A stretch of 64,000 nt of DNA, from contig JAJDTX010000101.1 in NCBI GenBank assembly GCA_022826925.1, positions 1-64,000 on the forward strand. The letters run 5' to 3'. Shown one piece after another: positions 11,601 through 29,500 of the stretch. The DNA is from Bryobacterales bacterium (GTDB taxonomy: Bacteria; Acidobacteriota; Terriglobia; Bryobacterales; UBA6623). How positions within the stretch are numbered: the stretch's first letter is position 1; every line of letters starts with the position of its first letter. The notes under the pieces are model-generated. The model had not been told where the DNA came from. It saw only the letters and a program-made list of their open reading frames with translations, and did no database searches. The translations under genes were made by a program, and so were the position numbers.

Positions 11601-11668
11601 ACCGATCCCGCAGTGCGGGAATGCGAGAACCGTTGACGATGCACCTGCGCCACTGTATCGTGGTTCCC

Positions 11669-13330: not shown

Positions 13331-16300
13331 TCACCGCCCAACTCGCTTTTTCCGCAGCTGCAACCCCGGACAGATCTCACCAATTGACTCGTTGATCTTG
13401 TCAACGGTCCCCGGCGGCACATTCCTCGCCTCATCTCCGAGCTGAATCTCCAGTCGAAATTCCAATCCCACACCAACCGCCGCTTGTACGATCTCGTCCA
13501 GCGCGTCAGCAAAGTCCTGCAACTCGTTGGGTTCCAGACGAGCTGATCCCAAGTAGACTTCTGGCCCGGGAGGAGGCGGAGGGGTTTTGCTCGGCGTTCT
13601 CAGCTTCACCTCTTTTGCGGCGGCCAAATCACATGGCCATGTGCCGCTGCCGGGAACGACTTCCAACCAGCGTGCCGTGATCGCAGCGTCGATGGATTGC
13701 CGCAGTACAGTCCAAGGAAGAGGATTCCCTTCCTGGCCAGCTAGCGCAGTGGCAAGGGCCGTTACGTTCGTTTCGCCCGCCACCCAAGCGTCTGCGACAG
13801 CATCCGGCATGAGGCGCTGAACCGGGAGCGGTTCCATCGGTGCCTGGAGTGTCGCCGTTTCAGTCAGCAAGCCAGCCGGCAACGCCTCGCCCTGAAAACT
13901 GGAGGGTCCGTTCAGCAGCCACAGGCTGCCCCCTTCAACTGCCAATTGGATGGCTTCTTTGACTCGTTCGGACGGGCAGGCAGGGATGTCCACGGGCTCA
14001 TCGTAGCCATCTCGCGGGACCATTACCGTCCGACCACCCTTGAAATAATCGACCACGTCAGACACCGTAATCGAGGCCCCGGTCCAGAGTCCTGGCAGTG
14101 CTTCGGGGCTCAGGACGCTAGGAGCGATATCCGACAGTGTGGCTCTGCTTGGCAGGAAAACCTCCAAGGCTGGCTCGGCTAGTGCCGGTTCGTCGATCGG
14201 TGTCCGCCACCAAGTCTTGATCGACCGGTCGGGCCTCATGAGAGACGCGACGAATAGGCCATCGTGCACGCCCCGGTCAATTGTGGCGAGAATTTCCTGC
14301 GCTCGCAGCATCTTCGGCAGCTTCGGATTCTCAGCAAACGCGTTGACCAAGTCCTTTACGCGCCGCGATGGCTCGTCCTCGCGCCAAACATCGTACGGTC
14401 CGCCGGGCAAGAGCGCTTCAGCGTTGATCGCACTGTCTTGGATGCGTGAACGCTTGTCCGCCTTGATTGTCACAAACAAGGGCCCCGTGCCGGCCGTGAC
14501 CCGGAACGCATGTATCTTGTTTTCCGGACTCACGCTCACGACGACCGACCATGCCTGTTGGATGGCCTCAGCGATCCGTCGTCGAGCCTCCGCCGTCCAA
14601 GTTGCAAGCCGTTGATCGCGAACAGCATCCGACTCCTGATCTTTGAGCTGGGTCTGCACATCCAGCCAGCCCAAGTACTCCCGGACGCGTGACTGCACTA
14701 CATCAAGGCCATCGGCCGAAGGTGCCACGAGCACAAGCGCATTGCGCCGGATTCGTGGACGGTCGGGCCCGGTCGTTTCATTGATGAAGCGGCACGCCAT
14801 ACTACTCGCCTCGCGAGTGGTAGAGACGGCTTTTGGTGTCAGAATCGCGAAGTGGAATTCGCCATCATCCGCGATGTCACTGGACTGCTCCGGCAACATG
14901 TGTACGCGCACCCCGTACGACTTTGCTCCTTCGGTCAGACTCTTCGTCGCGCGGACATCCTGAAGCAGCTTCTGTTCGACTTCTTCCGCGCTTACTCGGT
15001 TGGTGCAGGCGTCGTAGTGCATCTGCTTCAGGTTGGGACGGTTTCCGAGCCGCCATGCCTTCGGCAGGGGTGGTGGGCCACCATCTATCGGCGTGCCGCT
15101 CTCGAATTCGTTTTCATCCAAGAACCATGACACTTCCGTCCAGCGGCGTAGTGCCTGCTCCAACTCGATGCGGTCTGGTCGCGCTGCGCCGAGCAGCCCG
15201 ACCAGATCCTGCGTGTGGGCCTTTTGGCCGATCGGCTGCGAGCCGAGGAACACGGTGCAGACCGCCTGTTCCAGCTCACGTCCCTGCAACGCTGACTGGT
15301 CACTCTGGATGTCCTGCGCCTTGGCGAGCTCGCCCTCCAATATCGCCGACCAGTCGTGGCCCCGCCCTTCGGTTAGCTCGCGCGTGGCGATACCAGTCAA
15401 CTCGCGGGCCGCCTCGGAGATTCCTGCGTGGTCGGGTGCCGCCAAGAACACGTTTGGTCCGACGAGTGGAGCGAGGTCCCATTGCTCTGCGTCGCGCAGG
15501 GCTATGGCGAACGTGCGCAAAATTCCGCGGGTGCGCTGGAACTTGTCCAGTTGTGTCCACCGCGTATAGAAAAAGTCGGTCAGATCGGGATGGAAGGGAT
15601 ACCCGCTTCTGAATCGGGCTTCTGCGTTCTTGCGGTCTTTCCGAACATCGTCGTCGAGCGCCGCTAGGTTGTTGACGATGGTCGTGACATGCGGGAGGAA
15701 ACGGCTGGTGTCGGCGATTGATTCCGAGGTGAAGAAGCGACGGCGCAGCACTTCCGCCACGTCTTCGCGCTGGACCGGCTGCACGCCTTCTTCTTTCTGG
15801 CGGTTGAAGATGGCGGCGATCTGTCCGCTCAGCTTCTTGCCGACCTCGTCGCTCGTGGTTGGGTCGGAGGCGAGCAGGGACGCTATGAGTGCGCACCGGT
15901 CAACCTTGGTCACGGCCTGGCAGAGATGCTGAAAAAAGTCGACAAGGCGACCGCGCCACACTTCGTCCGCCGCAACCTTGCCGCGGGCGAACATCAGCAC
16001 TTCGTCGATCAGTACGAGCGTCGCCAATCCCTCGGATTGGGGCCTTGCCAGCAGATGGACTAGTAACGGCTCGGCCGGCGGCGTCTGGCGTTCCTCGTCG
16101 AGGCCTTCGGCGTGAAGCGCACGGATGCCAGCCGCACCGGCAATCTGAAAGGCAAGCACACTCCATGGATGCTTCAGCCAGCGCAGTTCGCCCTGCGGTC
16201 CGCGCACCTCCATTCCCTTCTCGACATCCAGCTTGTCGAAGGCGAGCGCTGCCACACGAGCTGGAGCCAGCGGAGCGCCGATGTGGGACTTGAACTGCTC

Positions 16301-16645
16301 GACCGCTGGTAGGTTCGGCAGCGCATCAGGATCGTGTGCGAGATGACGGAGCGTCACCAGCGTATGAGTCTTGCCGCCACCGTATGTCAACTCCAGCTGC
16401 CGCACTGCCTTCGTGTTCTGACCAGCAAGCCGCAGCACAACATCTCTTGCTAGCTCGCGGAGCGAGAACGTCGGGAAGGTCAATGCGAAGAACTGGGCCG
16501 GATCCTCGTAGATTGGCCGTGTGCCGCGCTGCATCATCACGTCGTGCAGATCGGCTGCGAATTCGGCCAGCGAAAGCTCGCCGGTGCGCAGATCGTCGCG
16601 CAGGGACACCACTTGGTGCCACGGGGTCCAAGGGAGTTGTTGCAT
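13331..16645 (-). CDS. DUF499 family ATPase
   Basis: 1,104 residues. The N-terminal half is a P-loop NTPase: Walker A at about 86-94 (LTYGGGKTHTL) and Walker B with Asp214-Glu215 (LVLIDEVLMF). DUF499 proteins are large ATPases found next to DUF1156 methylases and helicases in loci thought to act in defence or DNA modification; their biochemical role is not established. The C-terminal half (about 600-1104) has no clear motif and ends in a basic tail (LQLRKKRVGR). GGAGAG lies about 8 nt before the ATG. It is the last gene of the island and sits 0.6 kb behind the truncated ATPase, a gap unusually large for this locus, where most genes overlap. Confidence 0.85.
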   Translation of the reverse strand: MQQLPWTPWHQVVSLRDDLRTGELSLAEFAADLHDVMMQRGTRPIYEDPAQFFALTFPTFSLRELARDVVLRLAGQNTKAVRQLELTYGGGKTHTLVTLRHLAHDPDALPNLPAVEQFKSHIGAPLAPARVAALAFDKLDVEKGMEVRGPQGELRWLKHPWSVLAFQIAGAAGIRALHAEGLDEERQTPPAEPLLVHLLARPQSEGLATLVLIDEVLMFARGKVAADEVWRGRLVDFFQHLCQAVTKVDRCALIASLLASDPTTSDEVGKKLSGQIAAIFNRQKEEGVQPVQREDVAEVLRRRFFTSESIADTSRFLPHVTTIVNNLAALDDDVRKDRKNAEARFRSGYPFHPDLTDFFYTRWTQLDKFQRTRGILRTFAIALRDAEQWDLAPLVGPNVFLAAPDHAGISEAARELTGIATRELTEGRGHDWSAILEGELAKAQDIQSDQSALQGRELEQAVCTVFLGSQPIGQKAHTQDLVGLLGAARPDRIELEQALRRWTEVSWFLDENEFESGTPIDGGPPPLPKAWRLGNRPNLKQMHYDACTNRVSAEEVEQKLLQDVRATKSLTEGAKSYGVRVHMLPEQSSDIADDGEFHFAILTPKAVSTTREASSMACRFINETTGPDRPRIRRNALVLVAPSADGLDVVQSRVREYLGWLDVQTQLKDQESDAVRDQRLATWTAEARRRIAEAIQQAWSVVVSVSPENKIHAFRVTAGTGPLFVTIKADKRSRIQDSAINAEALLPGGPYDVWREDEPSRRVKDLVNAFAENPKLPKMLRAQEILATIDRGVHDGLFVASLMRPDRSIKTWWRTPIDEPALAEPALEVFLPSRATLSDIAPSVLSPEALPGLWTGASITVSDVVDYFKGGRTVMVPRDGYDEPVDIPACPSERVKEAIQLAVEGGSLWLLNGPSSFQGEALPAGLLTETATLQAPMEPLPVQRLMPDAVADAWVAGETNVTALATALAGQEGNPLPWTVLRQSIDAAITARWLEVVPGSGTWPCDLAAAKEVKLRTPSKTPPPPPGPEVYLGSARLEPNELQDFADALDEIVQAAVGVGLEFRLEIQLGDEARNVPPGTVDKINESIGEICPGLQLRKKRVGR

Positions 16646-16894: not shown

Positions 16895-17281
16895 CTAGTC
16901 AGCGTAGCCACGTGAAGCGCGATGTGTGTCCCGTCGTCTCAGATCAAAGGGTCGCCAGCAGCAAGATTGCTGGGAGAGGCGGCCTTTGGGTCGTCGGACG
17001 AGTTCTCTTAGCGAGCACAGCGAGAGCCAGCATCGTTTCGTATCTCGCCAGACACTACGACGCGCTAGCGCCCCAAAAAATCTCGAAGTCGCAGAGCCTA
17101 CGGGCGGGCAGAATGGCATCATGTGAGCGTCAGTGGTTGAAGCCGAACGTGTGAAGTTCCCGAAAGCGTTGCGGAGCAGCGTCTTGCCACTCGCGTTCGT
17201 GCGCACGAGTACGGAGAACGGACCGAAACTGAATTTCTCACCGAATCTCGGGAGAGCGAAGTGGTGCGATGACACGCTCAT
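16895..17281 (-). pseudogene. Truncated AAA ATPase gene (Walker A region only)
   Basis: The ATG at 17281 overlaps the stop of the receiver-like gene as ATGA, like the two upstream junctions. The first 45 codons read as the start of an SMC/RecF-like 'predicted ATPase': FALPRFGEKFSFGPFSVLV, then RTNASGKTLLRNAF. That is a P-loop in which the first Gly of GxxxxGKT has become Arg. From about 17146 the frame becomes unlike any ATPase and stops at 16895, without Walker B or signature motifs. I infer that the gene was cut by deletion or insertion; the remaining DNA to 16646 holds no recognisable part of it. Confidence 0.65.
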
Positions 17282-18519
17282 TGTTCGTCCTCCCCAAGGT
17301 TTCGCGTTGCCGCGATGCGAACAGCATCTTCCGGAATGCGGGGCAGCCCCTGCCTTTGCAGATAAAGGCCAAACCGCTGCTGAACCCTGGTCACGTATGG
17401 GTGCAGCAATCGGCCAACGCGCTTTTCCTTCAGGCAACAGAACTTTTCGATTCGGAGTTTCCTAAAGTCGAACCGAACACTCCTGCCTTCATGCACGGAG
17501 AATACGATGTGCTCCCATACCCTTTCGGTAAAGTGCCCTGCATCATACTTTTGATCGAGTTCGGTGTCTGGAATCCTCTTCCCTTCGATGCAATACAGTT
17601 CAATGTCACCATTCTCCTGTCCGTTCCTAGGGACGCAGTCGCAATCGGGCCGGAGGTTCAGCAGAAACTTCTGTTTGGGCAACTGAAACATATCGCCACA
17701 TCCAATCTCGTCTTCGATCAGAACTTGCTGCGGCCGGAAACTGATTTCGCCAATCAGAGCCCGTACCTCCTCCTTTGGAACCTCGGAATTGGCGACACCA
17801 AGAATTTCCTCGTTGAACTCGGCCGTCTGCATGCGCCCGCGGAGGTTGTCGTTAACGAGATGCGTAAGCGAAGAACTCGGGTCTACTCCGTCATCCTTGT
17901 ACGCTTTCCAGAACACTCGTGGCCAATCCGGGCTTCTGGCGTACATCGCTCCGAACAACTCCTTCCTTGCGGCGTGAAAGGCGCTCTCCCACACCTTCAG
18001 GGCGTACACCGACGCGTTTTGCCGCAACCACTGCTCGATCTCGCTGAATTCGACCGAGCCGTCAGTCAATAGGCTGGCTTTGTTACGAACGAAAACGAAA
18101 TTCTTCTCGCGCGATTCATCCGAGAAGATTCTGTCCGGCAGCTCGTCCACAACGTCGTCCTCACTCTCGTTGGTGAAGATGAGGACTGGCACAAAGTGGT
18201 CCCTAGCCGCTTCTAGGAACTGGATGTTCTTCTTAATGCCTTCTTGTTCGATTTGAGAGGCATCGAGGGAGGCATCGGTCGACCACATCTTCCAATCCAA
18301 TAGGACGAAGCTTGCTGACCGCAGCAGGCTTGGCCATGTCTTGCTGGCAGGCATCTCCCGCGTGGTGTAACACGCTAGGTCCCATTCGCCTTCGATTTGT
18401 CCGACGATCTCGTTGATCGGATCTACATGGGCGTCCTCGTCATACTGGTCCTCGGTGGCAGCATCGACCTTGTCATCGATGACTACTCCGATACCCGACA
18501 TCAGGTCTTTGAGTTTCAT
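17278..18519 (-). CDS. Receiver-like response regulator partner of the dual-GHKL kinase
   Basis: 413 residues. The N-terminal 160 residues have the pattern of a phosphoacceptor receiver domain with long insertions: an acidic pair Asp15-Asp16 (VVIDDKV), a candidate phospho-Asp75 after a hydrophobic strand (SFVLLDWKM), Thr116 (VPVLIFTNE) and Lys147 (VRNKASLL). The remaining 250 residues have no recognised output domain and contain several Cys and Trp residues (CDCVPRN, EKFCCLKEKR); no helix-turn-helix is obvious. Its start overlaps the kinase stop as ATGA, and its own stop overlaps the ATPase remnant as ATGA. This is a predicted cytoplasmic two-component partner with an unknown effector half. 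Confidence 0.65.
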   Translation of the reverse strand: MKLKDLMSGIGVVIDDKVDAATEDQYDEDAHVDPINEIVGQIEGEWDLACYTTREMPASKTWPSLLRSASFVLLDWKMWSTDASLDASQIEQEGIKKNIQFLEAARDHFVPVLIFTNESEDDVVDELPDRIFSDESREKNFVFVRNKASLLTDGSVEFSEIEQWLRQNASVYALKVWESAFHAARKELFGAMYARSPDWPRVFWKAYKDDGVDPSSSLTHLVNDNLRGRMQTAEFNEEILGVANSEVPKEEVRALIGEISFRPQQVLIEDEIGCGDMFQLPKQKFLLNLRPDCDCVPRNGQENGDIELYCIEGKRIPDTELDQKYDAGHFTERVWEHIVFSVHEGRSVRFDFRKLRIEKFCCLKEKRVGRLLHPYVTRVQQRFGLYLQRQGLPRIPEDAVRIAATRNLGEDEQ

Positions 18520-20744
18520 GAACTGTCTTCCTGCTTGAAGCTGACGACGATGTTGGCGCCACTCAGAACTCTCTGCTGTTTGTCACCGACATCAATGCGG
18601 TAGCCGTGCCGCTCCAAAAGCCGTCGTGCGATATATAGACCTAGGCCTCGTCCACTCTCTCCCTTACCCGAATAAAACGGCTCGAAGATGTATGGGAGAT
18701 CGTCAGGATCGATGCCGGGACCGCTGTCGGAAAAGATCATGGTCCCCTGATTCCCGTCAGTCGTCAGGCAAATTCTGCGCTCCGCTGGACCGACGGCTTC
18801 CAGCCAGTAACAGGCGTTGTCGAACAAGTTGACCAGAACCTGCATGACCGCGCCATCGGTCGTGTTGGCCATCAACGACGATTCGCCCACTTTCTCATGC
18901 CAGAATTTGATGTTTCGTTGTTCAAGCAAAGTCTTGTAGATCTTATGGACTCGCTTGATCACTGGTTCGATTCGGAGAACCTTTCGGCGTCGCCGCGACG
19001 ATTTGAACAGGACTTGGACCTCTTTCATGCTGTCTGTGATCTGCCGAAGTACGCGGAGCAACATGTCCGCTTGGTCCCGCATTTCACAGCCTTCCGGGCC
19101 GGCCGACTGAGTGAGGTCCTTGGCAATTACCCGGGCGCGATTTACCAGAAGCATGATGTCATGGGACGCCATTTCGACAGAGAGCCCGACGCCCGCAAGA
19201 TCCTCGGTTGTCTCGGCACGCTGGGACAGATATTTCCGTTCTTGCCCGTAGGAAGTGGAGACAGCGGCTACTCGCCCCGCTAGCGCTTTGTGTCCCGACT
19301 TTTCCAAACCATCCTGCAATTCTGCCAAGCCCCGAGTCACCTCGTCGTCGCGCACAGCGCGAGCAGCGTCGCGCTGCTTCTGTTTCTGCTGATACCGAGC
19401 GAACGGGTACTGCTTAACGTATGAGAGAAAGAGTTGCATAAGGAATACGAGATCCCGGGCCGCGCCCCCGGATTCGATTAATCCTTCGCGGTTTGTCTTG
19501 TCCCTTAGGTTCGGATTGCCCTTCTGAGTAATGTCGATCCAGCCGATGAGTTGGTCGTTACTGAAGAAATTGCCCGCCCGACCCGTGCCACGGGTCACGT
19601 CAATGTTCAACCAGTCATCGTCTGGATCCCCATAGGGATACACGCGCATGTCGTCACGGTAGAGGTAGACCCGGTGTTCCTTGAGTCGATCCTTTTCGGT
19701 TTGAGCCAGCATGTAGCGCCCGTCGATACCTCGGGAGAAGTCGAAGACATAGAAATTGAACTTGAAATCACCGCATGCGTATTCGCTCCCAGTCGGAGCA
19801 AACATCGATATCTGTCCAGGCATGGTGCCGGAAGCCCTGCCGTGGCGTTGACGCCACACCCAAAGACCCATAATCTTCGGGTCCGTCAGCGTGACTTCGC
19901 CGGGTGTGTCGTTAATCTGGAAGGCGAATCGACTCCCCGAAGAGCGAAAGCTGCCAGAGATGTTTAGGACGGCCTTGTCCTCAATCAACGCCTTGAGCGA
20001 TTCGGCGTCTTCGGTCACGACGGATCGCGGTTTCCCATTGCACAGAATCGCGACGTCAAAACGGTCGGATGTCTTACGTCCGGTGAGCCGTGACACGGGA
20101 TCCGTCAGATTGGAGACGTCCCGGCACAGTTCCGTGACGATGCTGTTGTCCCAGGCCCCTTTCAGATTCCGAACCTCAATCACTGTTCCTTGGCCATCTT
20201 TGTCGGACAGTAGATTCGGAGTAGATTCCAAACAATTGATCTCTATCTCATCTAGAAATATCTCCTTCAAATGATCGTTTTCCGATACGAAATCGTCATC
20301 AAACCTCGAGAAATCATATGTCAGCCTCATTTCGGAATCTGCCCCGCTTTGGCGTGTGGTGACCGTGATCACTTTCCCCAGTTTCAGAACGGCAAAACGA
20401 CCAATCCCTTTTTCACCCTGAATCACTCGATTTTTGTTAGGGGATCTCTCTTTTCCCTTCCGTTTGTCGAGATATTTATGGGGCGCGGCAGGGTTCATCC
20501 ACCGAGTTCGTACAGTCTCGGGTGACATACCCACGCCGTCATCTTGCACCACGATACGGGAATCGTCATCGTGCGCCATGTCGTCACGAAAATTCTCGAA
20601 TCTCACCTCGACGCGACTCGCGTCAGCGTCGTAGGCGTTCTTGATCAACTCCACCAATGCGATCCGTTCGTTCTTGATCAACTGGTCGCCCAACATCGTC
20701 AACAGCCGGGCATAGGGGCGGATTTGCAGAACCTCCGACTTCAT
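18516..20744 (-). CDS. Soluble sensor histidine kinase with two GHKL ATPase domains
   Basis: 742 residues. The N-terminus (about 20-130) is an Hsp90/MORC-type GHKL ATPase: ELIKNAYDAD (Glu32, Asn35), DDGVGM (68-73) and GEKGIGR (110-116). A middle region (about 200-500) follows. A dimerisation/phosphoacceptor helix has VEMASHDIMLL with His528 as candidate, and the C-terminus (about 610-742) is a second GHKL domain of histidine-kinase type: N-box NLFDNACYW, DSGPGI, FEPFYSGK and GRGLGLYIARRL. No transmembrane helix or signal peptide is present, so any stimulus is intracellular. The ATG at 20744 overlaps the methyltransferase stop as ATGA; I rejected longer starts inside that gene. Confidence 0.8.
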   Translation of the reverse strand: MKSEVLQIRPYARLLTMLGDQLIKNERIALVELIKNAYDADASRVEVRFENFRDDMAHDDDSRIVVQDDGVGMSPETVRTRWMNPAAPHKYLDKRKGKERSPNKNRVIQGEKGIGRFAVLKLGKVITVTTRQSGADSEMRLTYDFSRFDDDFVSENDHLKEIFLDEIEINCLESTPNLLSDKDGQGTVIEVRNLKGAWDNSIVTELCRDVSNLTDPVSRLTGRKTSDRFDVAILCNGKPRSVVTEDAESLKALIEDKAVLNISGSFRSSGSRFAFQINDTPGEVTLTDPKIMGLWVWRQRHGRASGTMPGQISMFAPTGSEYACGDFKFNFYVFDFSRGIDGRYMLAQTEKDRLKEHRVYLYRDDMRVYPYGDPDDDWLNIDVTRGTGRAGNFFSNDQLIGWIDITQKGNPNLRDKTNREGLIESGGAARDLVFLMQLFLSYVKQYPFARYQQKQKQRDAARAVRDDEVTRGLAELQDGLEKSGHKALAGRVAAVSTSYGQERKYLSQRAETTEDLAGVGLSVEMASHDIMLLVNRARVIAKDLTQSAGPEGCEMRDQADMLLRVLRQITDSMKEVQVLFKSSRRRRKVLRIEPVIKRVHKIYKTLLEQRNIKFWHEKVGESSLMANTTDGAVMQVLVNLFDNACYWLEAVGPAERRICLTTDGNQGTMIFSDSGPGIDPDDLPYIFEPFYSGKGESGRGLGLYIARRLLERHGYRIDVGDKQQRVLSGANIVVSFKQEDSS

Positions 20745-22033
20745 GACCGTCTCCCAACGACGACGAACTCCTCGCCGTACACCTCGCGCGCCGTTAAATC
20801 TCGCGTGAACCGGCCACGCGCATCGCGATACGGCGTCATGGTCTTCAATGAGACCTTGCGGCGTGTAGAGGCGATGTCGCAAAAACCCGCGCGATCCATA
20901 CATCTCGCCAGATGCGCGGCATTGTCGATCCGAATGCCCTTGTATTCGGTGTTGCCGATCACGAAAACCGCCATGCCGCCTGTGTTCAACATTCTCCAGC
21001 ACTTAGCCACAGCCTTATCTACGTCGAGAAAATACCGTGCCACCGAATGCGCCTTGTGCCGACACTCGCTCAGCAGGCCCTGATACATTTCCGCAGTAGT
21101 CGTTCCGAGGCTCTCAATGGCTTCTAGTGAAGGCGGTCCGACGCCATACTGGTTGCCCAGCATTCCCCTGCGGAGTTCGCGATAGTCAGTAGCGCTGCGC
21201 AACCACAGCGTCGATAGTTGATGAATGTCCGCGTAGTTATACGAAGTGACGTACGGCGGACTGGTGACGATGAGATCCACCAAGCAGGACGGTTTCTCCG
21301 ATGCGAGAAAGTCCTGAGTGCGAATCCGGACCGTCTGGCCGCGAGCAGGGAAAAGGTTGGCGCCACACGCTTTCTGCATCTGGTTGAACTGATCCTCGAA
21401 GGCCTCCATTACGCCACGCGGGGACTTGTGCGGGTCGAGCTGCGCCTTAATTGACTTGGTCAGCCATCTGGAGGTCGGTTTCAGGATGTTTGAGAATCCG
21501 CATAGAAAGAACGCCCGATATGGACTCTTGGCCGGCGTGAATTGACGGATCGAGCGGTCGAGCCGGATCAGGTCGTCTATGTTGCGCTCCTCGAACCAGT
21601 AACGTATGCGATCGCTGATTCGCGCGCGGTCTTCCATTGACGGCTTGGTGCTGCGAAACCCCTCTTGGATAGCCTCGAAGTACCGAACGAGAGCGGGGCC
21701 CCTGTAGTGCCGGGTCTTGACTTTCGCGATCAATGTGGCGACGGGATTAATGTCGCACCCCCAAAAGCTCTTGCCCCTTCGTTTCGCTTCCACCGCCGTA
21801 GTGCCGCAACCGCAGAATACGTCTGCCACGACCTTCACATCGACACCGTTCCGTTTGGCGTGTTCCAATGCCTTCGTCGTAATGAAGCTAGGGAACTTTG
21901 CTGGGTAGCTGTGAATCCTGTGAATCGGATCCTCTCTACTATCTCTGCGATCTCCGAAATCCCAGTATGACGCCGAAACTGGAGAGCAGTTTGAGGCACT
22001 TGTCGTCGATGACGCTTTCAGGACAGAACTCAT
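20741..22033 (-). CDS. SPPY-type DNA methyltransferase (N4-cytosine/N6-adenine)
   Basis: About 430 residues from the ATG at 22033 (a GTG at 22069 adds 12). Motif I is VFCGCGTTAVEAKRRG, binding S-adenosylmethionine; the catalytic motif IV is TSPPYVTSYN, as in exocyclic amino methyltransferases, more often m4C or m6A. Motif I precedes motif IV, the beta-like order. The N-terminus has HRIHSYPAKFPSF, seen in other methylases of this kind. No separate target-recognition domain is obvious. It is translationally coupled by ATGA to the dual-GHKL kinase and lies 157 nt after the DUF1156 methylase, so the island has two distinct methylases. Confidence 0.8.
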   Translation of the reverse strand: MSSVLKASSTTSASNCSPVSASYWDFGDRRDSREDPIHRIHSYPAKFPSFITTKALEHAKRNGVDVKVVADVFCGCGTTAVEAKRRGKSFWGCDINPVATLIAKVKTRHYRGPALVRYFEAIQEGFRSTKPSMEDRARISDRIRYWFEERNIDDLIRLDRSIRQFTPAKSPYRAFFLCGFSNILKPTSRWLTKSIKAQLDPHKSPRGVMEAFEDQFNQMQKACGANLFPARGQTVRIRTQDFLASEKPSCLVDLIVTSPPYVTSYNYADIHQLSTLWLRSATDYRELRRGMLGNQYGVGPPSLEAIESLGTTTAEMYQGLLSECRHKAHSVARYFLDVDKAVAKCWRMLNTGGMAVFVIGNTEYKGIRIDNAAHLARCMDRAGFCDIASTRRKVSLKTMTPYRDARGRFTRDLTAREVYGEEFVVVGRRS

Positions 22034-22190: not shown

Positions 22191-25100
22191 CTACAGCGTC
22201 AACTGCCGCACGGGCCCAGTGTCGCTCCTAGTCAAGATATGATTCGACAGCGATTCTAACAGCGCACGCTCTTCGGAACCTGCGTCGGCCAGTTCGATCA
22301 AAGCTTGCAACACCCGTCCAAAGAGTGCATGGCGCTTGAGACCGTGATCGAGAAGGTAGGAGTTAACTTTCCCCTCGTCTCCGGCACGCCAGAGGTGCAT
22401 CAACCGATGCGCCTGATCAATCAATGGCGGCTGGCTACCATCGGACGGTCGATGCCCGAGCGACTTCGCCATTCTCCTGTTCCAACGTTTCAGCTTCACT
22501 TTGCTGCCGGTGCTACCGGAACCTCCTGCCGCACCCGCATCGCTGTCTGAGGACGGCGCGTCGTCGTCCAACTCGTCGGTCGAAGTGTGGCTGCCACGTG
22601 ACAGAATGTCGTGGCGGTCTGTCAAGTCCCGATCTGAGAGGTTACAAGAAATCGCATAGAGAATGCAGGCACCGATCGGGGCCTCGCCGAGACCGAAGTC
22701 GTTCCGGTGCAGCAGGTAGTATGTGGTGATGTCGTCAAGCCCACTGGTCGCCTCCGCGTCGCCATCGTGTGTCAGCACCCGGCCCACAACGAAGTCGACG
22801 ACGAACCGACGTACCTCCATGAGAAACTCCGATACCGTCATTTGCGAACCGATGGCATCGGCCTTCTTAACGACCGGGTATTTGGAAAACGCCTCAAGTG
22901 CCGGTCCTGTCGCTGCCCATACGAAGTCAGGGCCACGTATGCCAGCATCCCAGAAGTCGCGGAGCTGCTGCGAGATGTTCTCACGCATTTCTGCTAGCAC
23001 TGCGGCGTCCCAACCAACTCGCGTCGGCAGACGCTTGCGGCAGACGATCCAGATGGACGAGGCGAGCGCCGCAGAGGAGAGCGATCGCTGTCGGGTTTCC
23101 ATTTCCGTTCTGATGGGCCACGAGCCGACTACGACGAAGCCAGTCCGGATCAACGCTGAGACCAAAGTCTCCCACGCAGCGGGCGACTTATTCGCAAAGA
23201 CAACGATCAGTCGGCCTTCGTCCCGCAGAACCGTGTGAAACCGTGAGAACGCGCGTGCCATGCCGTCCTCGTAGTTCCGCTTTGATTCCTCACGGTTGCC
23301 GTTGAAACGGGCTGCGTCATCGATCAGTTCGCCGTCGTTAGCCGCAGCATTCCACTTCGGGCCGAGAGCCGTCTGAAACGCCGCATCGATTTCCGGGGTG
23401 AGCCCCCAAAGCACACGCCTTAGCCACACATGGAAGAAGTCCATCAAGTCGGAGTAGGGAATGGCATCGTAGTAGGGCGGATCTGTGCAGATCAGGTCGA
23501 AGCTGCCGCGAACCGCAGTAGTATCCCGCAGAGTCGTAGCGGACTGGTTTAGCACAACAGGTGCAGGTGCGTCGCGGGCGGCGACAAGCAGATGCTCACA
23601 GACGCGAGCGAGCCATTCAACCGACGCGACGAATCCACCTGTGGTGTTTGAAAGGGGGTTCACCTCGCAGAAGTCCCAGACCATGGGAAGTGCGAATCGG
23701 GCAAAGGTTTGCCTCAGCTTCTCGCCGCTGTTGTGCCAAGAACAGATCACGCTACTGTAGTCAGCAAACTTGCTTAGTGCGCACGAAACGTAGATCGAAT
23801 TCGCCTCGCGCCACGGCTCCGGACAGTCAGTCATGTCCTCGGTGAGATGGCGAATCTCTTGGACGATCGTGCCAAGTGCGAGGAGTTGGCGGTTTGTGAA
23901 CAGCTTGCGCCAAGAATCGAATCCGTAGCGCGGAATCCGCATTCCGAGGCTCTCCTCGCTCGGTGTAGGCTCCTCTGGTAATCCGAATGGAATCTCCTCA
24001 AAGAGTCGGTCGAGGTCTGCGTGCTCCACACGCGCTACTTGACGCTCGTTCTCCGTCGGCAGCCGGTACTCCTTCCCGTCTGGCCCATCGACCACAACCG
24101 CGGTCATGACCTCGCCCAGCCTCCCGGCTCGACCGTCGAGCCGAAGGTCTTCCATCGTCATGATGGTCGGGCACAGCGGACACGACAGGCCCGACCGGCT
24201 CATTGTTCCGCCGCCAATCTGCTTGTCGTGTTCACGCCGCTGTGCAGCGTTGCCTTTTCCCTGAGGCGCGTCCGGCTCGATGCCAAACACAATGCCGCTA
24301 CGCTCCGCGTTAGGCGTGATCTTCAGCAAGACGCGCTTGCGGTCCTTCTTCGCAAGCCACCGCGTCTTGAGCAGCGGGACTGTAGCGCGGCAGCCCTTAC
24401 AGCGGACCGTACGAGCCCACAAGTATGCAACGGTCGGTTTCGGAACCCAGCGTGGATTACCGGGATCTTCGAGCCAAGCAGCATCGAACTCCGAATTCAA
24501 CGATCGGACACTAGTGTTGCCGTCTTCGTCTGGGCTCAGCAGCGTCATCGGCCGTGGCTCAAACAGCCCGGCTCCCGGCTTCAGTGCTTGGAACGCCGCG
24601 TACGTCGGATAGCAGTCAGCGAGCCGTCGCCGTGCCTTTCTGAGGACTTCACGTCCCCATGCACGCACGTGCCAACCGAGATCCGCCTCCATCGTGGGCC
24701 CATCATGGAACAGTTCAGGCGTCGAGTCGCCGGAGGTACCGAAGCCAAGTTTCTTAAGTTCGAGCCTCAGTCCACGGCCTTTGAAACCCTTTGCCTTCAA
24801 GAGGCCAGCCATGAAGTCACGGTCCTGCAGTACAAAGGTCGGCAACGCCTTGGTCTGGCCCGCGAGGCTCCGGGGATAGTCGAGCGTGCATTTGAGGATG
24901 AACCACGCCACTGGGTTGATGTCGACCGCCGTGGCATCACAGCCTAGCCGCATGGCCTCCAATGGAATAGCGCCACCGCCTGCGAATGGGTCGAGCACCT
25001 TCGGAGCACGACCGCCGTACACCTCACGGATCTGCTCACGGAACCAGTCAAGATCCATCTCCTGCTCCCGCTTCCAGTGCAGAATCCCGCCTCGCGTCTC

Positions 25101-25382
25101 GCGCTTCCGCTTCGTGACCTGCTGCCCGCCGATGCGTTTGTCCTCCACGGTCTCTACGATCCTGCCCGCCATTCGCTCGTAAATCGCCTGCCGCTCTCGA
25201 TTGTTGGCGGGGTCAGGCGTAAGGGCTGCGATCAGCACCGCACGGCACGCTGCCAATGGTCGCCGCGCCGGCCAGATGTGTAGCGTCGAGATGTGTCCGT
25301 GGCGCACGCTCTTTTCGTGAACGGAGTCAATCGACGCCTGCTCCAACGGGAATGCAATTTCGATGGCGCGCTTGTCGTTCAC
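22191..25382 (-). CDS. DUF1156 DNA methylase
   Basis: 1,063 residues. The DUF1156 start (AFPLEQASIDSVHEKSVRHG at residues 10-29, then HIWPARRPL) is clear. Motif I is DPFAGGG (131-137) and the catalytic motif is CTDPPYYD (632-639). Between them is an insertion with two Cys pairs, CKGC (328-331) and CPLC (401-404), probably a zinc ribbon. Such large adenine-specific methylases accompany DUF499 proteins. I chose the GTG at 25382 because it overlaps the preceding TGA as GTGA and has GAGGGAG 7 nt upstream; the frame is open 10 codons further. The C-terminus is low complexity (SSDSDAGAAGGSGSTGSK), then basic. Confidence 0.9.
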   Translation of the reverse strand: MNDKRAIEIAFPLEQASIDSVHEKSVRHGHISTLHIWPARRPLAACRAVLIAALTPDPANNRERQAIYERMAGRIVETVEDKRIGGQQVTKRKRETRGGILHWKREQEMDLDWFREQIREVYGGRAPKVLDPFAGGGAIPLEAMRLGCDATAVDINPVAWFILKCTLDYPRSLAGQTKALPTFVLQDRDFMAGLLKAKGFKGRGLRLELKKLGFGTSGDSTPELFHDGPTMEADLGWHVRAWGREVLRKARRRLADCYPTYAAFQALKPGAGLFEPRPMTLLSPDEDGNTSVRSLNSEFDAAWLEDPGNPRWVPKPTVAYLWARTVRCKGCRATVPLLKTRWLAKKDRKRVLLKITPNAERSGIVFGIEPDAPQGKGNAAQRREHDKQIGGGTMSRSGLSCPLCPTIMTMEDLRLDGRAGRLGEVMTAVVVDGPDGKEYRLPTENERQVARVEHADLDRLFEEIPFGLPEEPTPSEESLGMRIPRYGFDSWRKLFTNRQLLALGTIVQEIRHLTEDMTDCPEPWREANSIYVSCALSKFADYSSVICSWHNSGEKLRQTFARFALPMVWDFCEVNPLSNTTGGFVASVEWLARVCEHLLVAARDAPAPVVLNQSATTLRDTTAVRGSFDLICTDPPYYDAIPYSDLMDFFHVWLRRVLWGLTPEIDAAFQTALGPKWNAAANDGELIDDAARFNGNREESKRNYEDGMARAFSRFHTVLRDEGRLIVVFANKSPAAWETLVSALIRTGFVVVGSWPIRTEMETRQRSLSSAALASSIWIVCRKRLPTRVGWDAAVLAEMRENISQQLRDFWDAGIRGPDFVWAATGPALEAFSKYPVVKKADAIGSQMTVSEFLMEVRRFVVDFVVGRVLTHDGDAEATSGLDDITTYYLLHRNDFGLGEAPIGACILYAISCNLSDRDLTDRHDILSRGSHTSTDELDDDAPSSDSDAGAAGGSGSTGSKVKLKRWNRRMAKSLGHRPSDGSQPPLIDQAHRLMHLWRAGDEGKVNSYLLDHGLKRHALFGRVLQALIELADAGSEERALLESLSNHILTRSDTGPVRQLTL

Positions 25383-26248
25383 GAGCGTGCTCCCTCTGCA
25401 TGCTTGTGCCACAGATAGCTAGCAAATGACGCACAGGCACTCAGCATGAAGATGGCCTCATCCTGGCCCACCCTCGAGGAGACCTCGTCAAGTAAGGCAT
25501 GACGTATGCCCTGCTCATCGGACGTGTACCCGTAGAGCTTCTGAAATCCCGATTTGAGCGCCGGATGCAGTGGCGTACGGCGTTCAATCGAATTCAGCGC
25601 AGGTCCGAGGGTCCGAGCTCCATCGGGATCAAGTTGTCGGGCCACCGATTCGACCGCGTGGATGCTTTCCCGGATACTGTCTGCCCATTTGCCCTCGTTG
25701 ATGCGCGCCGACGCATTGCGCAAGTGCGTGGCACTGCCGCCCAACCCAGCCTGTCGAAGTGATTGCAGAGCCTCAATCACAGCGGCACCCTCTTCAGGGG
25801 TGACGGCCGGGACTATGCTCGGTGGCGGCCCGAAGTCTATGGTGTATGCCAAACGGCTGGCCTCGAAGGTGGAATTCATCTGTTCAACAAACTGGCGCGG
25901 ACATTCGGGATGGCTCAGTACAAACTCGATCATGTCAAAGACCCTGTTGAACAACGGTATTGATTCGATGCGATCTCGCAAGTCACCACAGAAGTAATTG
26001 AATTCTGGGTTCCACTCGTCGCGCGGCAAACAGTCGAAATCAGTGTGTAAAGACAAGAAGATCTGTCCCCAAGGACTACCTATCACTGGATTACGTCTGG
26101 GCAGCTTCAATCTTGATGACTTGAGGCTGGCATAGAACAGATTCCAGATGCGTATCCGCGCTTCCGAGGGAAGCTCCTCCAACTTGAGTCGCGCTGGAAT
26201 CTCCTCGTAACCGTACCGTTGCGAAAAACTGCGCTGGCTGTACTCCAT
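25379..26248 (-). CDS. AbiJ_NTD4 domain protein
   Basis: 289 residues beginning MEYSQRSFSQRYGYEE; the stretch FSQRYGYEEIPARLKLEELP, with IRIWNLFYASL following, is the AbiJ N-terminal domain type 4 signature. The C-terminal half has the usual partner sequence DSIRESIHAVESVAR, LHPALKSGFQKLYGYTSDEQGIRHALL. In AbiJ-type abortive-infection proteins this N-terminal module is joined to varied toxic or sensor C-termini. The ATG at 26248 has AAGGAG 7 nt upstream; an ATG at 26311 is less likely. Its stop overlaps the DUF1156 start. An effector gene placed between helicase and methylase genes suggests that it belongs to the operon rather than being a separate system. Confidence 0.8.
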   Translation of the reverse strand: MEYSQRSFSQRYGYEEIPARLKLEELPSEARIRIWNLFYASLKSSRLKLPRRNPVIGSPWGQIFLSLHTDFDCLPRDEWNPEFNYFCGDLRDRIESIPLFNRVFDMIEFVLSHPECPRQFVEQMNSTFEASRLAYTIDFGPPPSIVPAVTPEEGAAVIEALQSLRQAGLGGSATHLRNASARINEGKWADSIRESIHAVESVARQLDPDGARTLGPALNSIERRTPLHPALKSGFQKLYGYTSDEQGIRHALLDEVSSRVGQDEAIFMLSACASFASYLWHKHAEGARS

Positions 26249-26294
26249 GTTCAAACTCCTTCCAAAATGCCAAGAGCGTTGGGATGAATCCCCC

Positions 26295-26543
26295 TCAGGC
26301 AGATCTCCCATTCCCCTCGCTCTCGGCGACCCGATGGAACGCTAATCGGGGATGCAGCCCGCTCCATCGGCGTATTGCCCGGCCCAGCGTCGTCCTGAAT
26401 CCCGGAAGAATCTGAGCAGTATTCCGAACTGGCTGTTGGTCACCCGACAACGCGCACAGCACGTCAGTTCTGAGCCATGACCGCATTGGACACGGCCCGA
26501 ATACGTCGCCCCATTCCGTCGTTTGTGGCCCAATTCGAAACAT
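26295..26543 (-). CDS. Small protein coupled to the helicase (TAATG)
   Basis: 82 residues. Its ATG (26543-26541) shares one base with the helicase stop codon TAA, giving TAATG, a typical translational-coupling junction, and the next gene's AAGGAG follows its stop closely. The sequence reads like a folded basic domain: FGPCPMRSWLRTDVLCALSG, ILPGFRTTLGRAIRRW and LAFHRV. I do not recognise a named family. Because its position and composition both fit, I take it as real; a non-coding spacer is the alternative. Confidence 0.55.
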   Translation of the reverse strand: MFRIGPQTTEWGDVFGPCPMRSWLRTDVLCALSGDQQPVRNTAQILPGFRTTLGRAIRRWSGLHPRLAFHRVAESEGNGRSA

Positions 26544-29500
26544 TACGCCTCCCCGACCTGACTCCCCTCAGATGCTGCATGCACGGAAGACGCTGAAACG
26601 GCGTAAGACGAGAACTCCTGCCCCTTTGCGAGGAGCTTGGCAAATGGGTCACGAACTCGAACCAGCCGAGGCTTGGGGGTAGCGCAGTCATAGACTGCAT
26701 ACAACCAGTAACTGTCCCGCAAATTGCACGCCTTCGTCCACTCGTTCTCGGACAGCTTGACGACACCGGTATCGGCTCGGCCCTTGACTTCAATATTCCG
26801 GCGGCTTCCAGTCGGGAACACTGACAGCAGGTCGAAGCCCGGCCAGTCACCGAGACCTGCTTGGCGTGCTCGCTCGGGTCGGGAAACATCGTAGACGGAT
26901 GCTCCCAACGCTTCTTCGTGTGCCCGAGCGAGACGCATGGCGATCTCTTGAACCAGCGCTGTCTGATGCTCCCTATCTTCGGGATCATGGGTCGGGAGTA
27001 CGAGTGCGTGGGCTACCATCTCGGAGTGCCCTGCGACGACGAGCGCGGGCTCCGATCGGAGCAGTTCCAGACGTTGCTCCTTGTCCGTAGCCAAACGCCG
27101 CTGCTCGTTCTTGACCCTGGCCAATTCCGCCGCTGCGTTGGCGTCACCGTCACGCGCCCGATTCCTCACGCGCTTCCGCCTAGCGATCAGTTCCGCCGCC
27201 CGGTGGTCGCAGCCGCGGGCGAGCCACGCGAGCCGCTCGGGAAGCGATTGCTCGATTCGCACTCGATGCTCGTCCACGAGGCGCACTAGCGCTTCTCGGA
27301 CGATCCATTCGCGGGCTGCTTCGGTGAGCCCTTCTGCCCTCCAAGCAAGCGGCACGCTACCAGGCATCACGTCACGCGTACCAAGCAGGAGCAGCAGGTG
27401 TTCCAGCGGGCAGGGCTCGATGGAACCGTCGTCGCTCTGGCGGATTCCAATTAGCCGACTCTCTACGACCTCAGGCTCGGCATGGTGCCCGGGCCTCTCA
27501 CCCGCCTCCTGCGTAGTCGATACCGGCAGCGATCTTTTGCGAACCACCGACACCCGTGCGAGATGAAAGAGATACGGCGCATCAGAACGCGGGTCAAGAA
27601 ACACAGCGCCGTGTCGGGCCTCGTTCTTGCACCGTGAAAGCAGAACGCCACAGAATCGGTCGAACACGGGTTCGCCGGGGTGCAGCCAGATCACGTCCGA
27701 CCGATTCGATGGCCGATAAAACGTCAAACCACCATCTATGTTGGCCGGGTAGTCTTCCAACACGCTGAGTACAGGATTTAGACCATGCGACTGCTCCTGC
27801 ACGAGTTGAAATACGGCGTCAGGATCGCCTTCCACGCGAAGGCCAAGGAGCGGCGCGGCGGCGGTCAGGAATCGGCGGACATACCCGGGCATTAACCGCC
27901 GGTACGGCTCCTCTCTGATGGCGTCCCGTAGCGCGGGGAGGCGGCTCTTGACCTCGCCCCCACCGTACCGAGCGCGATCCCGTTCTTCGAGAGCACATGC
28001 TTGCTCCACGGTCAGCTGACCCTCGATCCCTCTAATGGCGTCTGAGACACCCTCAGCCGTCACCGCTTGCACCATATAGTCTTTGAGCGAGGCATCCTGA
28101 AATAGACGGCCCACAACATCGAAGACCTTGTCAGAGTTGAGCCGCTTGCGGATCAGTTCGAGCTTGTCGAGCAGGGTCTTCAAGACTCGGCCCTCGCGGG
28201 TCTCGCCTGCGACCAGATTGACGATGACCACCGGGTCATGCTGCTGCCCGTAGCGATGGATTCGCCCCATCCGCTGCTCAAGACGTGCCGGGTTCCACGG
28301 CACGTCGTAGTTCACCATCAACCAGCAGAATTGCAAGTTGATACCTTCGCCTGCGGCGTCTGTCGCGATCAGGTAGTTGGCACCTCCCTTGTTGAGCGGT
28401 TGCCGAAACAGCTCAACCTGCGCCTCCCTCTCGCGGTAGTCGAGACCCCCGTGGATCAGGGCAACCTGTCCGGTAAAGCCGAGTCCCTCGAGCCGGCGCA
28501 CCAAGAATTCGGCTGTGTCGCGATGTTCGGAAAAGACTATGAGCTTCTCGGCGGCAAAGTCCGGATGATGCAATACTCCCCATAGTTTTTCGAATTTGGA
28601 ATCCTCGACTTCATCAACCAGTCGACGAGCCATCGAGAGCAGCGCTTCCACTTCCGCCCACTCATTTCGAAGCTGAATCAAGTCTGCTGTGACGATGCCG
28701 GCCAGCGCTTGTTGTTCGAAGGCCTCGTGTCCCTCGGTCGCGCCCATCTCGTCGGAATCCTCGTCTGCGGTGTACTCCTCAAAGTAGTCGGGCATCTCAC
28801 TAAACCGCATTTGGCCACGTTCCAACTCGTCCGTGCGCCCATCGCGCACCATCTGGATCGCTTGGTCGAGCCGAACAAGGCGGCGCTCGAAGGACCGCAT
28901 CAGCGCATACGTCGAGCTTGCCTGCCGCCTTTGGAAAACTGTCATCGCTAGGCACGCCGCCCCGCGGTTCAGCGTCTGCGCCCGGTTATAAGTCTCGGAA
29001 ATGTAGCGCGTTGTCGCTTCGTATAGCGCCAGCTCGGCCTCGCTCAGTCGATAACTGATCGTGTCGCATCGTCGCTGTGGGTAAAGTGCCTTGCCATCGA
29101 ATGTGACCATCTCCTCCTTGGTTCTGCGAATGAAATGTCGTGTCCGCTGCGAGTCAGGGAAGTCGTTGAAAGCATCGAGTGTCGTTAACACATCCGGTAC
29201 CAGCAACCGCCATAGGCTGTAGTAGGGGAAATCCTTACCCATGTGCGGCGTCGCAGTCAGGAATAGCACGTGGGTCGCCGACCAACCCAGATCCCATTTA
29301 GGCTGGTCAGCTGGCAGGCCAGCGAGCGCCTCAGCGAGGCGGTACCGATTTGTCTTCCGGACGGAATAGTCCGTTTGCTGGTGGGCGGCGAGTTTGTGCG
29401 CTTCGTCGAAGACAACTAGGTCGTAGGGTGCCGCTCCCGATATCACTGCCTCGCGCATTCGCGAGAACATGCGTTCGCCAACCAGAGTGTCGAGACTGAC

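What the first reader, a model, noticed from the sequence alone, without database searches (positions are those of the whole stretch)
17278..22033. Methyltransferase + soluble dual-GHKL kinase + receiver-like protein + AAA ATPase: candidate undescribed sensing module
Seen: each gene overlaps the next by ATGA. The kinase has an Hsp90/MORC-like GHKL domain and a second kinase-type GHKL domain, a candidate phosphoacceptor His528, and no membrane segment. The receiver keeps Asp15/16, Asp75, Thr116 and Lys147. A DNA methyltransferase leads the unit. Known: some two-component systems act in phage defence, and MORC-type ATPases act on nucleic acids. Inference: a cytoplasmic two-component relay that senses infection or unmodified DNA, signalling to the unknown half of the receiver protein and to the ATPase.
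Basis: partly seen in the sequence, partly recalled or inferred. Interest (0 to 1): 0.75.

Follow-up and report, generated by a model that had tools for sequence, protein, structure and literature searches.

The report
Methylase–kinase–receiver defence cassette
Three tightly linked bacterial genes appear to form a mobile immune switch in which an Hsp90-like kinase, probably watching DNA, signals through a phosphate relay to a toxin-shaped output domain; remote relatives keep the kinase and carry other output parts.

Summary
Window 17278-22033 (minus strand) holds an intact DNA methyltransferase, a soluble kinase with two GHKL modules, and a receiver protein, joined by ATGA overlaps. In 62 close relatives the methyltransferase accompanies the kinase in 60 and the receiver in 59. 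The trio is a separable mobile cassette (viral contigs, a plasmid, many phyla). Here it sits inside an Hma defence locus; two same-genus genomes have that Hma locus without it. The 'AAA ATPase' is either HmaC or a decayed fourth gene. The kinase/receiver idea is in print (HEF_HK/Response_reg_2, 2021), so 'undescribed' is too strong; this is a divergent sister below both Pfam cut-offs. New here: the receiver's unknown half is predicted to be a barrel resembling MazF/PemK, by structure comparison only, without sequence support. Remote kinases keep the His (38 of 43) with different outputs (metallo-beta-lactamase, HNH, unknown). A methyltransferase lies near most viral ones (24 of 27) but in only 1 of 12 chromosomal ones. 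Best reading: a phosphorelay immune system with interchangeable effectors, coupled to methylation in this branch.

The parts
20741..22033 (-). DNA methyltransferase of the trio (430 aa; motif I FCGCGT, motif IV SPPY)
   Evidence: PF01555 E 9.5e-12; PADLOC MTase_II E 2e-36; motif columns conserved in relatives
18516..20744 (-). Soluble dual-GHKL kinase (742 aa): N-half GHKL + S5-like clamp ATPase, C-half DHp (His528, codon 19161-19163) + CA domain
   Evidence: PF13589 and PF02518; AF2 model pLDDT 82; Foldseek SMCHD1/MORC2/TRAP1/MutL and HK853/ZraS; H528 62/62
17278..18519 (-). Receiver protein (413 aa)
   Evidence: PF19192 15.9 bits, below the 27-bit cut-off; invariant D15, D75 (codon 18295-18297), K147; AF2 model pLDDT 91
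18016..18519 (-). Receiver (REC) domain, residues about 1-168
   Evidence: AF2 secondary structure; Foldseek matches to receivers such as 3hdv
17356..17697 (-). Output domain, residues about 275-388: small beta barrel resembling MazF/PemK; conserved GDxF, NxRxxCD and GR motifs
   Evidence: AF2 model; Foldseek best PDB hit MazF, E 4.1e-3, prob 1.00; PemK entries in BFVD; no sequence-profile support
16895..17281 (-). Decayed fourth gene: start overlaps receiver stop (ATGA); only a stretch near the Walker A motif of an AAA_21-like ATPase recognisable (17162-17239)
   Evidence: tblastn with L012 13437-14747, 54% over 26 aa, E 2e-5; that homologue is AAA_21 E 8.7e-29
26543..30157 (-). HmaA helicase (host locus of the cassette), with an N-terminal XRE-type HTH
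   Evidence: PADLOC HmaA E 9.6e-155; HTH_3 at residues 16-52
25379..26311 (-). PDC-S32 / AbiJ_NTD4 protein within Hma
22191..25412 (-). HmaB (DUF1156 methyltransferase), upstream border of the cassette
   Evidence: PADLOC HmaB E 1.8e-120
13331..16645 (-). HmaC (DUF499 ATPase), downstream border of the cassette
   Evidence: PADLOC HmaC E 8.1e-75

Best explanation
The three genes are a self-contained, horizontally moving anti-phage (or anti-foreign-DNA) cassette. The methyltransferase marks self DNA. The kinase's N-half is an ATP-driven GHKL+S5 clamp of the Hsp90/MutL/MORC kind that most likely closes on DNA or a DNA-protein complex lacking the mark (inferred). Closure drives the C-half to autophosphorylate His528, and the phosphate passes to Asp75 of the receiver (inferred from invariant residues and fold). 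Phosphorylation frees or dimerises the receiver's C-terminal MazF/PemK-shaped barrel, which acts as effector, most simply by cleaving RNA or otherwise stopping growth (inferred from fold only). In remote cassettes a similar kinase-receiver core stands beside other outputs, such as a separate metallo-beta-lactamase or HNH protein. Shown by computation: gene order, residue conservation, predicted folds, different outputs in remote relatives, position inside Hma. Inferred: ligand, phosphotransfer, effector chemistry, defence phenotype.
For: Methyltransferase in 60 and receiver in 59 of 62 close relatives; gaps of 20 nt or less in 59/59 and 56/58 measured. Pairwise distances of the three proteins correlate (r 0.77, 0.90, 0.72; 0 of 999 permutations each, 53 cassettes). 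H528 62/62; D15, D75, K147 59/59; GHKL motifs nearly invariant. Neither H528 nor any receiver or methyltransferase residue lies in the kinase peptides that fetched these loci. Kinase fold: clamp ATPases plus HK853-type core. No neighbour constant among three genes upstream and four downstream; a second, divergent methyltransferase in 13 loci. Mobile settings: IMG/VR contigs, a conjugative plasmid, a place between hmaB and hmaC that is empty in two same-genus genomes. Remote kinases: H at the 528 position in 38 of 43, methyltransferase-model match within 1.6 kb in 24 of 27 viral records, different outputs.
Against: No phage-defence or phosphotransfer experiment on this family was seen in the papers looked at. 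MazF resemblance has Foldseek E of 4.1e-3 at best (no PDB hit reaches 1e-3; unrelated chains such as ThiM score alike), and profile comparison with 26 MazF proteins is at the shuffled level, so the barrel may be non-catalytic. Both Pfam models of the 2021 family miss the window pair at cut-off. In 11 of 12 remote chromosomal loci no methyltransferase like those held was found. All PF00072 matches beside remote kinases are below the family cut-off, and the receiver profile does not match clusters c3, c9, c10 or the singletons. L120, L121, L122 and L125 lack the His. The cassette is rare near the window: 1 of 61 genomes.
Confidence: 0.55

Rival explanations
1. It is a Type II-like restriction-modification system in which the kinase/receiver pair is itself the sequence-specific DNA-cleaving restriction part (as GHKL-containing BbrUII/HgiDII enzymes are annotated), and phosphorylation merely licenses cleavage.
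For: Methyltransferase present in 60 of 62, a second methyltransferase in 13 loci as an asymmetric site would need (recalled reasoning), XRE-type regulators upstream in several loci; kinase N-half matches BbrUII/HgiDII NF050001 with 71 bits; an HNH protein in some remote cassettes.
Against: NF050001 matches residues 15-233 only, far below its 550-bit cut-off; no nuclease domain found in the kinase or receiver, the PADLOC REase_II matches covering only the GHKL part; the receiver barrel matches MazF, not a restriction fold, in the 50 listed hits.
Confidence: 0.2
2. It is a regulatory two-component system that controls expression or activity of neighbouring restriction or Hma genes, as the 2021 authors speculated, without a toxic output of its own.
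For: Invariant kinase and receiver residues; position inside Hma; speculation in PMC8011034.
Against: The receiver has no recognised DNA-binding domain; HmaB/HmaC hits lie beside the trio in only 2 of 62 relatives (31 of the 62 hold more than 6 kb on both sides), and no neighbour is constant.
Confidence: 0.17
3. The receiver and kinase homology is scaffolding only (pseudo-receiver); the clamp ATPase remodels DNA or protein and no phosphorelay occurs.
For: Some remote receiver-like partners lack a clear lysine at the expected place on reading (L094, L075); the receiver is far from canonical PF00072.
Against: 59/59 Asp75, 59/59 Lys147, 62/62 His528, intact N and G boxes in the CA domain; H retained in 38 of 43 remote kinases.
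Confidence: 0.06

Closest known systems
HEF_HK (PF19191) / Response_reg_2 (PF19192) two-component-like elements, Bellieny-Rabelo et al. 2021, PMC8011034
   Same: Soluble HATPase_c_3 + DHp + HATPase_c kinase next to a divergent receiver protein, near DNA methyltransferases; His and Asp conserved; R-M association; called paraMORC-related (parts 1-5 of 7 of the text read).
   Different: Window pair scores below both Pfam cut-offs; methyltransferase is N4/N6 type (SPPY) where the paper stresses C5; the receiver output domain, Hma setting and differing outputs were not seen in the text read.
paraMORC / MORC GHKL ATPases of R-M operons, Iyer et al. 2008, PMC2292703
   Same: GHKL + S5 ATPase module in methyltransferase-containing operons (passages read); structural match to MORC2 and SMCHD1.
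   Different: A complete histidine-kinase core and a partner receiver follow the clamp; no fused RE-fold nuclease was found.
Hma (DUF499-centred BREX-related) defence systems, PMC8565338, PMC12839542
   Same: The cassette lies between hmaB and hmaC; HmaA, HmaB and HmaC hits are strong.
   Different: Trio is separable: not in the two closest same-genus Hma loci, and HmaB/HmaC hits lie beside it in only 2 of 62 relatives. Passages read only.
Detocs (defence two-component systems)
   Same: Works like: two-component signalling that drives an enzyme effector (largely recalled; one passage of a meeting report seen, PMC9966839).
   Different: Detocs effector is an ATP nucleosidase; here a methyltransferase is part of the cassette and the output resembles MazF. 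No homology test beyond the PADLOC scan.
GHKL-type Shedu, VcSduA, PMC12137116
   Same: GHKL clamp ATPase proposed to control an effector domain in phage defence (passages read).
   Different: VcSduA is one protein with a C-terminal PD-(D/E)xK nuclease and no receiver.
MazF/PemK toxins
   Same: Output barrel gives Foldseek matches to MazF/PemK.
   Different: No sequence-profile similarity; fused to a receiver.

Membership tests
HEF_HK/Response_reg_2 system | Kinase passes PF19191 cut-off (24.1 bits) | tested here: not met
   No PF19191 match up to E 10 for the window kinase; 1 of 58 family members at E<=1, best 0.0012
HEF_HK/Response_reg_2 system | Receiver passes PF19192 cut-off (27 bits) | tested here: not met
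   15.9 bits, E 0.014; 8 of 57 members match at E<=1, best 1.7e-5
HEF_HK/Response_reg_2 system | HATPase_c_3 + DHp + HATPase_c architecture with adjacent receiver and methyltransferase | tested here: met
   Both ATPase models match 58 of 58 kinases scanned; partners in 59-60 of 62
Histidine kinase | DHp His followed by acidic residue, N and G boxes, HK fold | tested here: met
   H528, D529 and N639 62/62, D673/G675/G677/G700/G702 61/62 with one gap; HK853 TMt 0.65, ZraS 0.55
Response regulator (REC) | Acidic pair, phosphoacceptor Asp, Thr/Ser, Lys, and REC fold | tested here: met
   D15 59/59, position 16 D48/N10/E1, D75 59/59, T/S116 59/59, K147 59/59; Foldseek 3hdv and 2rdm, prob 1.00 and 0.99
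Response regulator (REC) | Passes PF00072 | tested here: not met
   No PF00072 match for the window protein up to E 10; 1 of 57 members scanned, E 0.067
Two-component system | Phosphotransfer between the pair | not testable with these tools
   Needs biochemistry
paraMORC/MORC | GHKL + S5 ATPase module | tested here: met
   By fold: Foldseek 6mw7, 9cdj, 5ofa, MutL 1nhh TMt 0.63
paraMORC/MORC | Placement in a named paraMORC1-5 family by sequence | not tested
   No paraMORC alignment at hand
MazF/PemK | Fold | tested here: inconclusive
   Best PDB hit and 15 of the 50 listed are MazF-type, prob 1.00, TMt 0.56-0.70, but E 4.1e-3 or worse
MazF/PemK | Sequence-profile similarity | tested here: not met
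   HHalign prob 0.2%; 41 of 100 column shuffles score as high
Type II R-M | Recognisable restriction endonuclease in the unit | tested here: not met
   No nuclease domain in the trio; PADLOC REase_II hits cover only the GHKL part; no constant neighbour
Hma | HmaA, HmaB, HmaC genes | tested here: met
   Present around the trio; the trio itself is not a required part
Detocs | DtcA/B/C components with nucleosidase effector | tested here: inconclusive
   No Detocs-named match in the PADLOC results, but I did not establish whether that library holds Detocs models

The most novel reading that the evidence does not exclude
A modular class of immune systems built on a clamp-kinase (Hsp90/MORC-like sensor fused to a histidine kinase) and a receiver, with exchangeable outputs: a MazF-shaped barrel (window type), metallo-beta-lactamase, HNH, or unknown proteins. 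In this branch and in most viral remote cassettes it is coupled to a DNA methyltransferase of varying type, so that self/non-self DNA sensing is relayed by phosphate instead of by direct cleavage; in chromosomal remote forms the methyltransferase may be dispensed with and another signal sensed.
Probability: 0.45. Interest if true: 0.85.

Novelty: new variant of a known kind. Interest (0 to 1): 0.63.

Why it matters
If true, bacteria use the textbook two-component phosphorelay to join DNA-methylation status, or another infection signal, to interchangeable killing modules. It would give the 2021 orphan kinase/receiver family an output and a probable role, help explain why Hsp90/MORC-type ATPases recur in restriction operons, and offer a tractable three-gene cassette to test how a DNA clamp switches on an effector.

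Tried and rejected
MazF homology by sequence: HHalign of 57 barrel sequences against 26 PemK proteins gave nothing above column-shuffled nulls; kept as a fold lead only. The second aligner (pdb_via) was not available. PADLOC found nothing for the receiver and Pfam nothing at cut-off. A strict motif regex for methyltransferases in remote loci missed many (9 of 44) and was replaced by Pfam-model searches, which cover 27 of the 44 remote loci (viral records; L099, L120, L121, L122 and L125 not searched). The 12 chromosomal remote loci were only searched with ten methyltransferases already held: 1 of 12 (L068) has a match, so a methyltransferase of another kind is not excluded. A histidine kinase with unrelated partners was rejected for the close family. 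The AAA ATPase as a core member was rejected: a homologue occurs only in L012 and L019 among the loci compared. PF00072 matches in the records of L097 and L103 lie away from the kinase and were not counted. Alignments used for structure prediction left out partial, duplicate or (for size) other rows: A4 holds 57 of 60 receivers (L011, L015, L027 out), A5 58 of 63 kinases (L011, L048, L054, L061, L089 out).
Full report
WHAT IS THERE. On the minus strand of window 17278-22033 lie a methyltransferase gene (20741-22033), a kinase gene (18516-20744) and a receiver gene (17278-18519). Both junctions are ATGA overlaps. The kinase carries HATPase_c_3 (residues 28-157) and HATPase_c (633-737). The receiver matches Pfam Response_reg_2 weakly (15.9 bits against a cut-off of 27). 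The methyltransferase is of the N4/N6 type (PF01555 E 9.5e-12).

SETTING. The trio sits inside an Hma defence locus: HmaA 26543-30157, a PDC-S32/AbiJ-like gene, HmaB 22191-25412, then the trio, then HmaC 13331-16645. In two same-genus genomes the most similar Hma loci have HmaB and HmaC separated by only about 430 bp (L181) and 510 bp (L182), with no trio; so the trio is a separable block, inserted here or lost there. Of 61 genomes searched around the window's organism (its own included), 18 have an HmaC-like match (E<=1e-20) and only the window's own has the kinase (E<=1e-60). Two named relatives, titled Vicinamibacterales and Vicinamibacteria (L012, L019), carry HmaB, methyltransferase, kinase, receiver, an AAA ATPase, HmaC in that order; the L012 ATPase is AAA_21 and the L019 one is 65% identical to it. 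In the window that fourth gene is decayed: its start still overlaps the receiver's stop, but only a stretch near the Walker A motif is clearly recognisable.

IS THE UNIT REAL? Kinase-based searches gave 62 close relatives (blastp at least 400 bits: 56 genome loci, 6 viral loci; one contig, L011/L030, is in both sets) from many phyla by record title. A methyltransferase relative is present in 60 of 62 and a receiver relative in 59 of 62. The exceptions are L050, L059, L061 and L089: L050 ends at the kinase, the L061 kinase frame is short, L089 starts within the kinase, and L059 has a receiver but no methyltransferase match. The gaps are 20 nt or less in 59 of 59 methyltransferase-kinase pairs and 56 of 58 kinase-receiver pairs, the commonest methyltransferase-kinase spacing being the 4-nt overlap (without L011). 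Over 53 cassettes (window included) the pairwise distances of the three proteins correlate (r 0.77 methyltransferase/kinase, 0.90 kinase/receiver, 0.72 methyltransferase/receiver; 0 of 999 permutations reach any of these); shared host phylogeny contributes to such correlations. HmaB/HmaC hits lie beside the trio only in L012 and L019; 31 of the 62 loci hold more than 6 kb on both sides of the kinase, so for the others absence is less telling. Among up to three genes upstream and four downstream, no neighbour is constant; the largest cluster, a divergent second methyltransferase, is in 13 loci (12 contigs), the next in 4. Of that largest cluster L011 and L079 were scanned and match N6_N4_Mtase. 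Small XRE-type HTH genes precede the methyltransferase in several loci. One cassette is on a conjugative plasmid, its receiver annotated hypothetical; of 91 plasmid records matching the kinase (E<=1e-10) only this one has a receiver match (E<=1e-3). L009 lies between large tail-like ORFs of a viral contig (my reading).

KEY RESIDUES. H528 62/62 and D529 62/62; Bergerat motifs of the first module E32, N36, D68, G70, G72 all 62/62; CA-domain N639 62/62 and D673/G675/G677/G700/G702 61/62 with one gap. Receiver D15, D75, W76 and K147 are 59/59; T116 is Thr 44 / Ser 15; position 16 is D 48, N 10, E 1. The kinase peptides used to fetch the loci include some GHKL-motif residues but neither H528 nor any receiver or methyltransferase residue. 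Profile alignment places the kinase's HD box on the H-box of LvrB and ZraS.

STRUCTURE. The kinase model (pLDDT 82) matches SMCHD1, MORC2, TRAP1 and MutL (E 3e-12 to 1e-10, long alignments) and HK853 and ZraS (TMt 0.65 and 0.55). The receiver model (pLDDT 91) is a receiver domain, a helical stretch, and a C-terminal barrel with element order b1-b2-H-b3-b4-b5-H-b6-H. I recall this as the MazF order; no call superposed them. Foldseek against PDB lists S. aureus MazF first (E 4.1e-3, prob 1.00), and 15 of the 50 listed hits are MazF-type (TMt 0.56-0.70). Receiver domains appear at similar levels (3hdv E 0.014, TMt 0.63), and so do unrelated chains such as ThiM (E 5e-3, but TMt 0.24). In BFVD a PemK/MazF protein ranks fourth (E 2.9e-3, TMt 0.68), with further PemK-like entries below. 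Against this, a profile of 57 barrel sequences versus 26 PemK proteins scores no better than column shuffles (41 of 100). So the MazF-like shape is a lead, and RNase activity is not shown. Near-invariant residues in the barrel (G275, D276, N288, R290, C293, D294) suggest an active or binding site.

WIDER FAMILY. Remote kinases (22-29% identity where the match is long; several match mainly over the N-terminal module) were examined in 44 loci with a kinase frame of at least 500 aa (12 genome, 32 viral); several viral ones are near-copies of each other. Added to the close alignment, 38 of the 43 with at least 640 aa carry His at the 528 position, in all 38 followed by Glu. The exceptions are L091 (an HE lies seven residues before), L120, L121, L122 and L125. 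The next gene falls into classes: 9 loci with a receiver of the window's kind (the barrel profile matches six of them at E<=0.013 and L074 at 0.055; L068 and L070 match only the full-length profile or its receiver part); a 230-aa protein followed by a metallo-beta-lactamase cluster (8 loci, plus L076 with the lactamase alone; Pfam tested on L094 and L075); a 209-223 aa protein followed by an HNH cluster (L095, L102, L117; Pfam tested on L102); a 340-400 aa protein followed by a second unknown protein (13 loci); and 10 others. Support for receivers there is partial. PF00072 matches the gene next to the kinase in L094, L096, L100, L109, L112 and L117 (E 4.9e-6 to 0.0016) and weakly in L009 (0.02), 7 of 32 records, all below the family cut-off. 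The window-type receiver profile matches the 13-locus cluster (E 1.7e-4, prob 50%, 0 of 20 shuffles) and cluster c4 (E 3.5e-8); c5 is marginal (0 of 20, E 0.026); c3, c9, c10 and the singletons do not stand out; of the negative controls the HNH cluster also exceeded its 20 shuffles, at a low score.

METHYLTRANSFERASES IN THE WIDER FAMILY. Methyltransferase models (PF01555, PF02384, PF00145) match within 1.6 kb of the block in 24 of 27 viral records. Two of the 24 (L114, L124) rest on matches below the family cut-off, and three (L109, L112, L118) lie about 1 kb downstream on the other strand. Of the three misses, L105 and L110 have an upstream gene with an NPPY-type motif. In the 12 chromosomal remote loci only L068 has a methyltransferase like those held, and the motif scan adds only a downstream candidate in L070. 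So kinase, His and a following receiver-like gene are the more constant part; the methyltransferase is constant in the close family and frequent in viral forms, but apparently missing from most chromosomal remote forms. This weakens 'senses unmodified DNA' as a property of the whole class.

KNOWN OR NEW. Bellieny-Rabelo et al. 2021 (PMC8011034; [quoted passage not shown] The window pair is a divergent sister: below both Pfam cut-offs, linked through remote members such as L097, whose receiver has PF19192 E 1.7e-5 (25.5 bits, just under the cut-off) and whose kinase has PF19191 E 0.0038. Iyer et al. 2008 (PMC2292703, passages) placed GHKL+S5 paraMORCs in R-M operons. Hma and embedding of defence genes within it are known (PMC8565338, PMC12839542, PMC12988326, PMC12255303; passages). 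I saw no paper on a receiver with a MazF-like output or on differing outputs in this family in the listings (open-licence library only). Searches matched 8,579 and 1,056 papers loosely, of which I saw only the top 12 and 10; so absence from print is not established.

VERDICT. A real, conserved, mobile cassette; the two-component reading is strengthened, the claim of an undescribed system is reduced to a new branch, and the output domain and its variation among relatives are the new parts. Function and chemistry are untested.

Noticed in passing
window 16895-17281: Decayed AAA_21-type ATPase gene whose start overlaps the receiver stop; open homologues in L012 13437-14747 and L019 13458-14741.
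   Followed up: yes
window 26543-30157 (residues 16-52): HmaA carries an N-terminal XRE HTH that resembles (50-60% over about 40-47 aa) small genes directly upstream of stand-alone cassettes (L010, L036, L039, L042, L043, L061).
   Followed up: partly
L011 3361-4545 and 12 other loci (L030 is the same contig): A second, divergent N4/N6 methyltransferase beside the cassette (11 of 14 members upstream and on the opposite strand), as expected if the recognition site is asymmetric.
   Followed up: partly
L094 9305-10995, L096, L100, L072, L073, L075, L078, L080: Remote kinase followed by a 230-aa receiver-like protein and a metallo-beta-lactamase cluster; the L094 one resembles LmuA/RTasMBL models. 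The five chromosomal ones show no methyltransferase like those held.
   Followed up: partly
L102 7832-9095, L095, L117: Remote kinase followed by a small receiver-like protein and an HNH cluster; the L102 member matches Septu PtuB models.
   Followed up: partly
L098 6910-8824 and 12 similar loci: Remote kinase followed by a 340-400 aa protein (receiver-like N-terminus) and a ~250-aa protein (one cluster in ten loci, another in three); those scanned (L098, L105) match no Pfam family.
   Followed up: partly
L120 12202-13401, L121, L122: Kinase relatives without the phospho-His and with a methyltransferase directly downstream; possibly a pure clamp ATPase branch.
   Followed up: no
window 31036-32436: Abi_C (abortive infection C-terminus) gene on the plus strand just beyond the Hma locus.
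   Followed up: no
window 25379-26311: PDC-S32 / AbiJ_NTD4 gene between HmaA and HmaB, kept in L012 and L019.
   Followed up: no
window 9660-11876, 37167-39053, 38773-40599: Three sulfatase-family genes on either side of the defence region.
   Followed up: no
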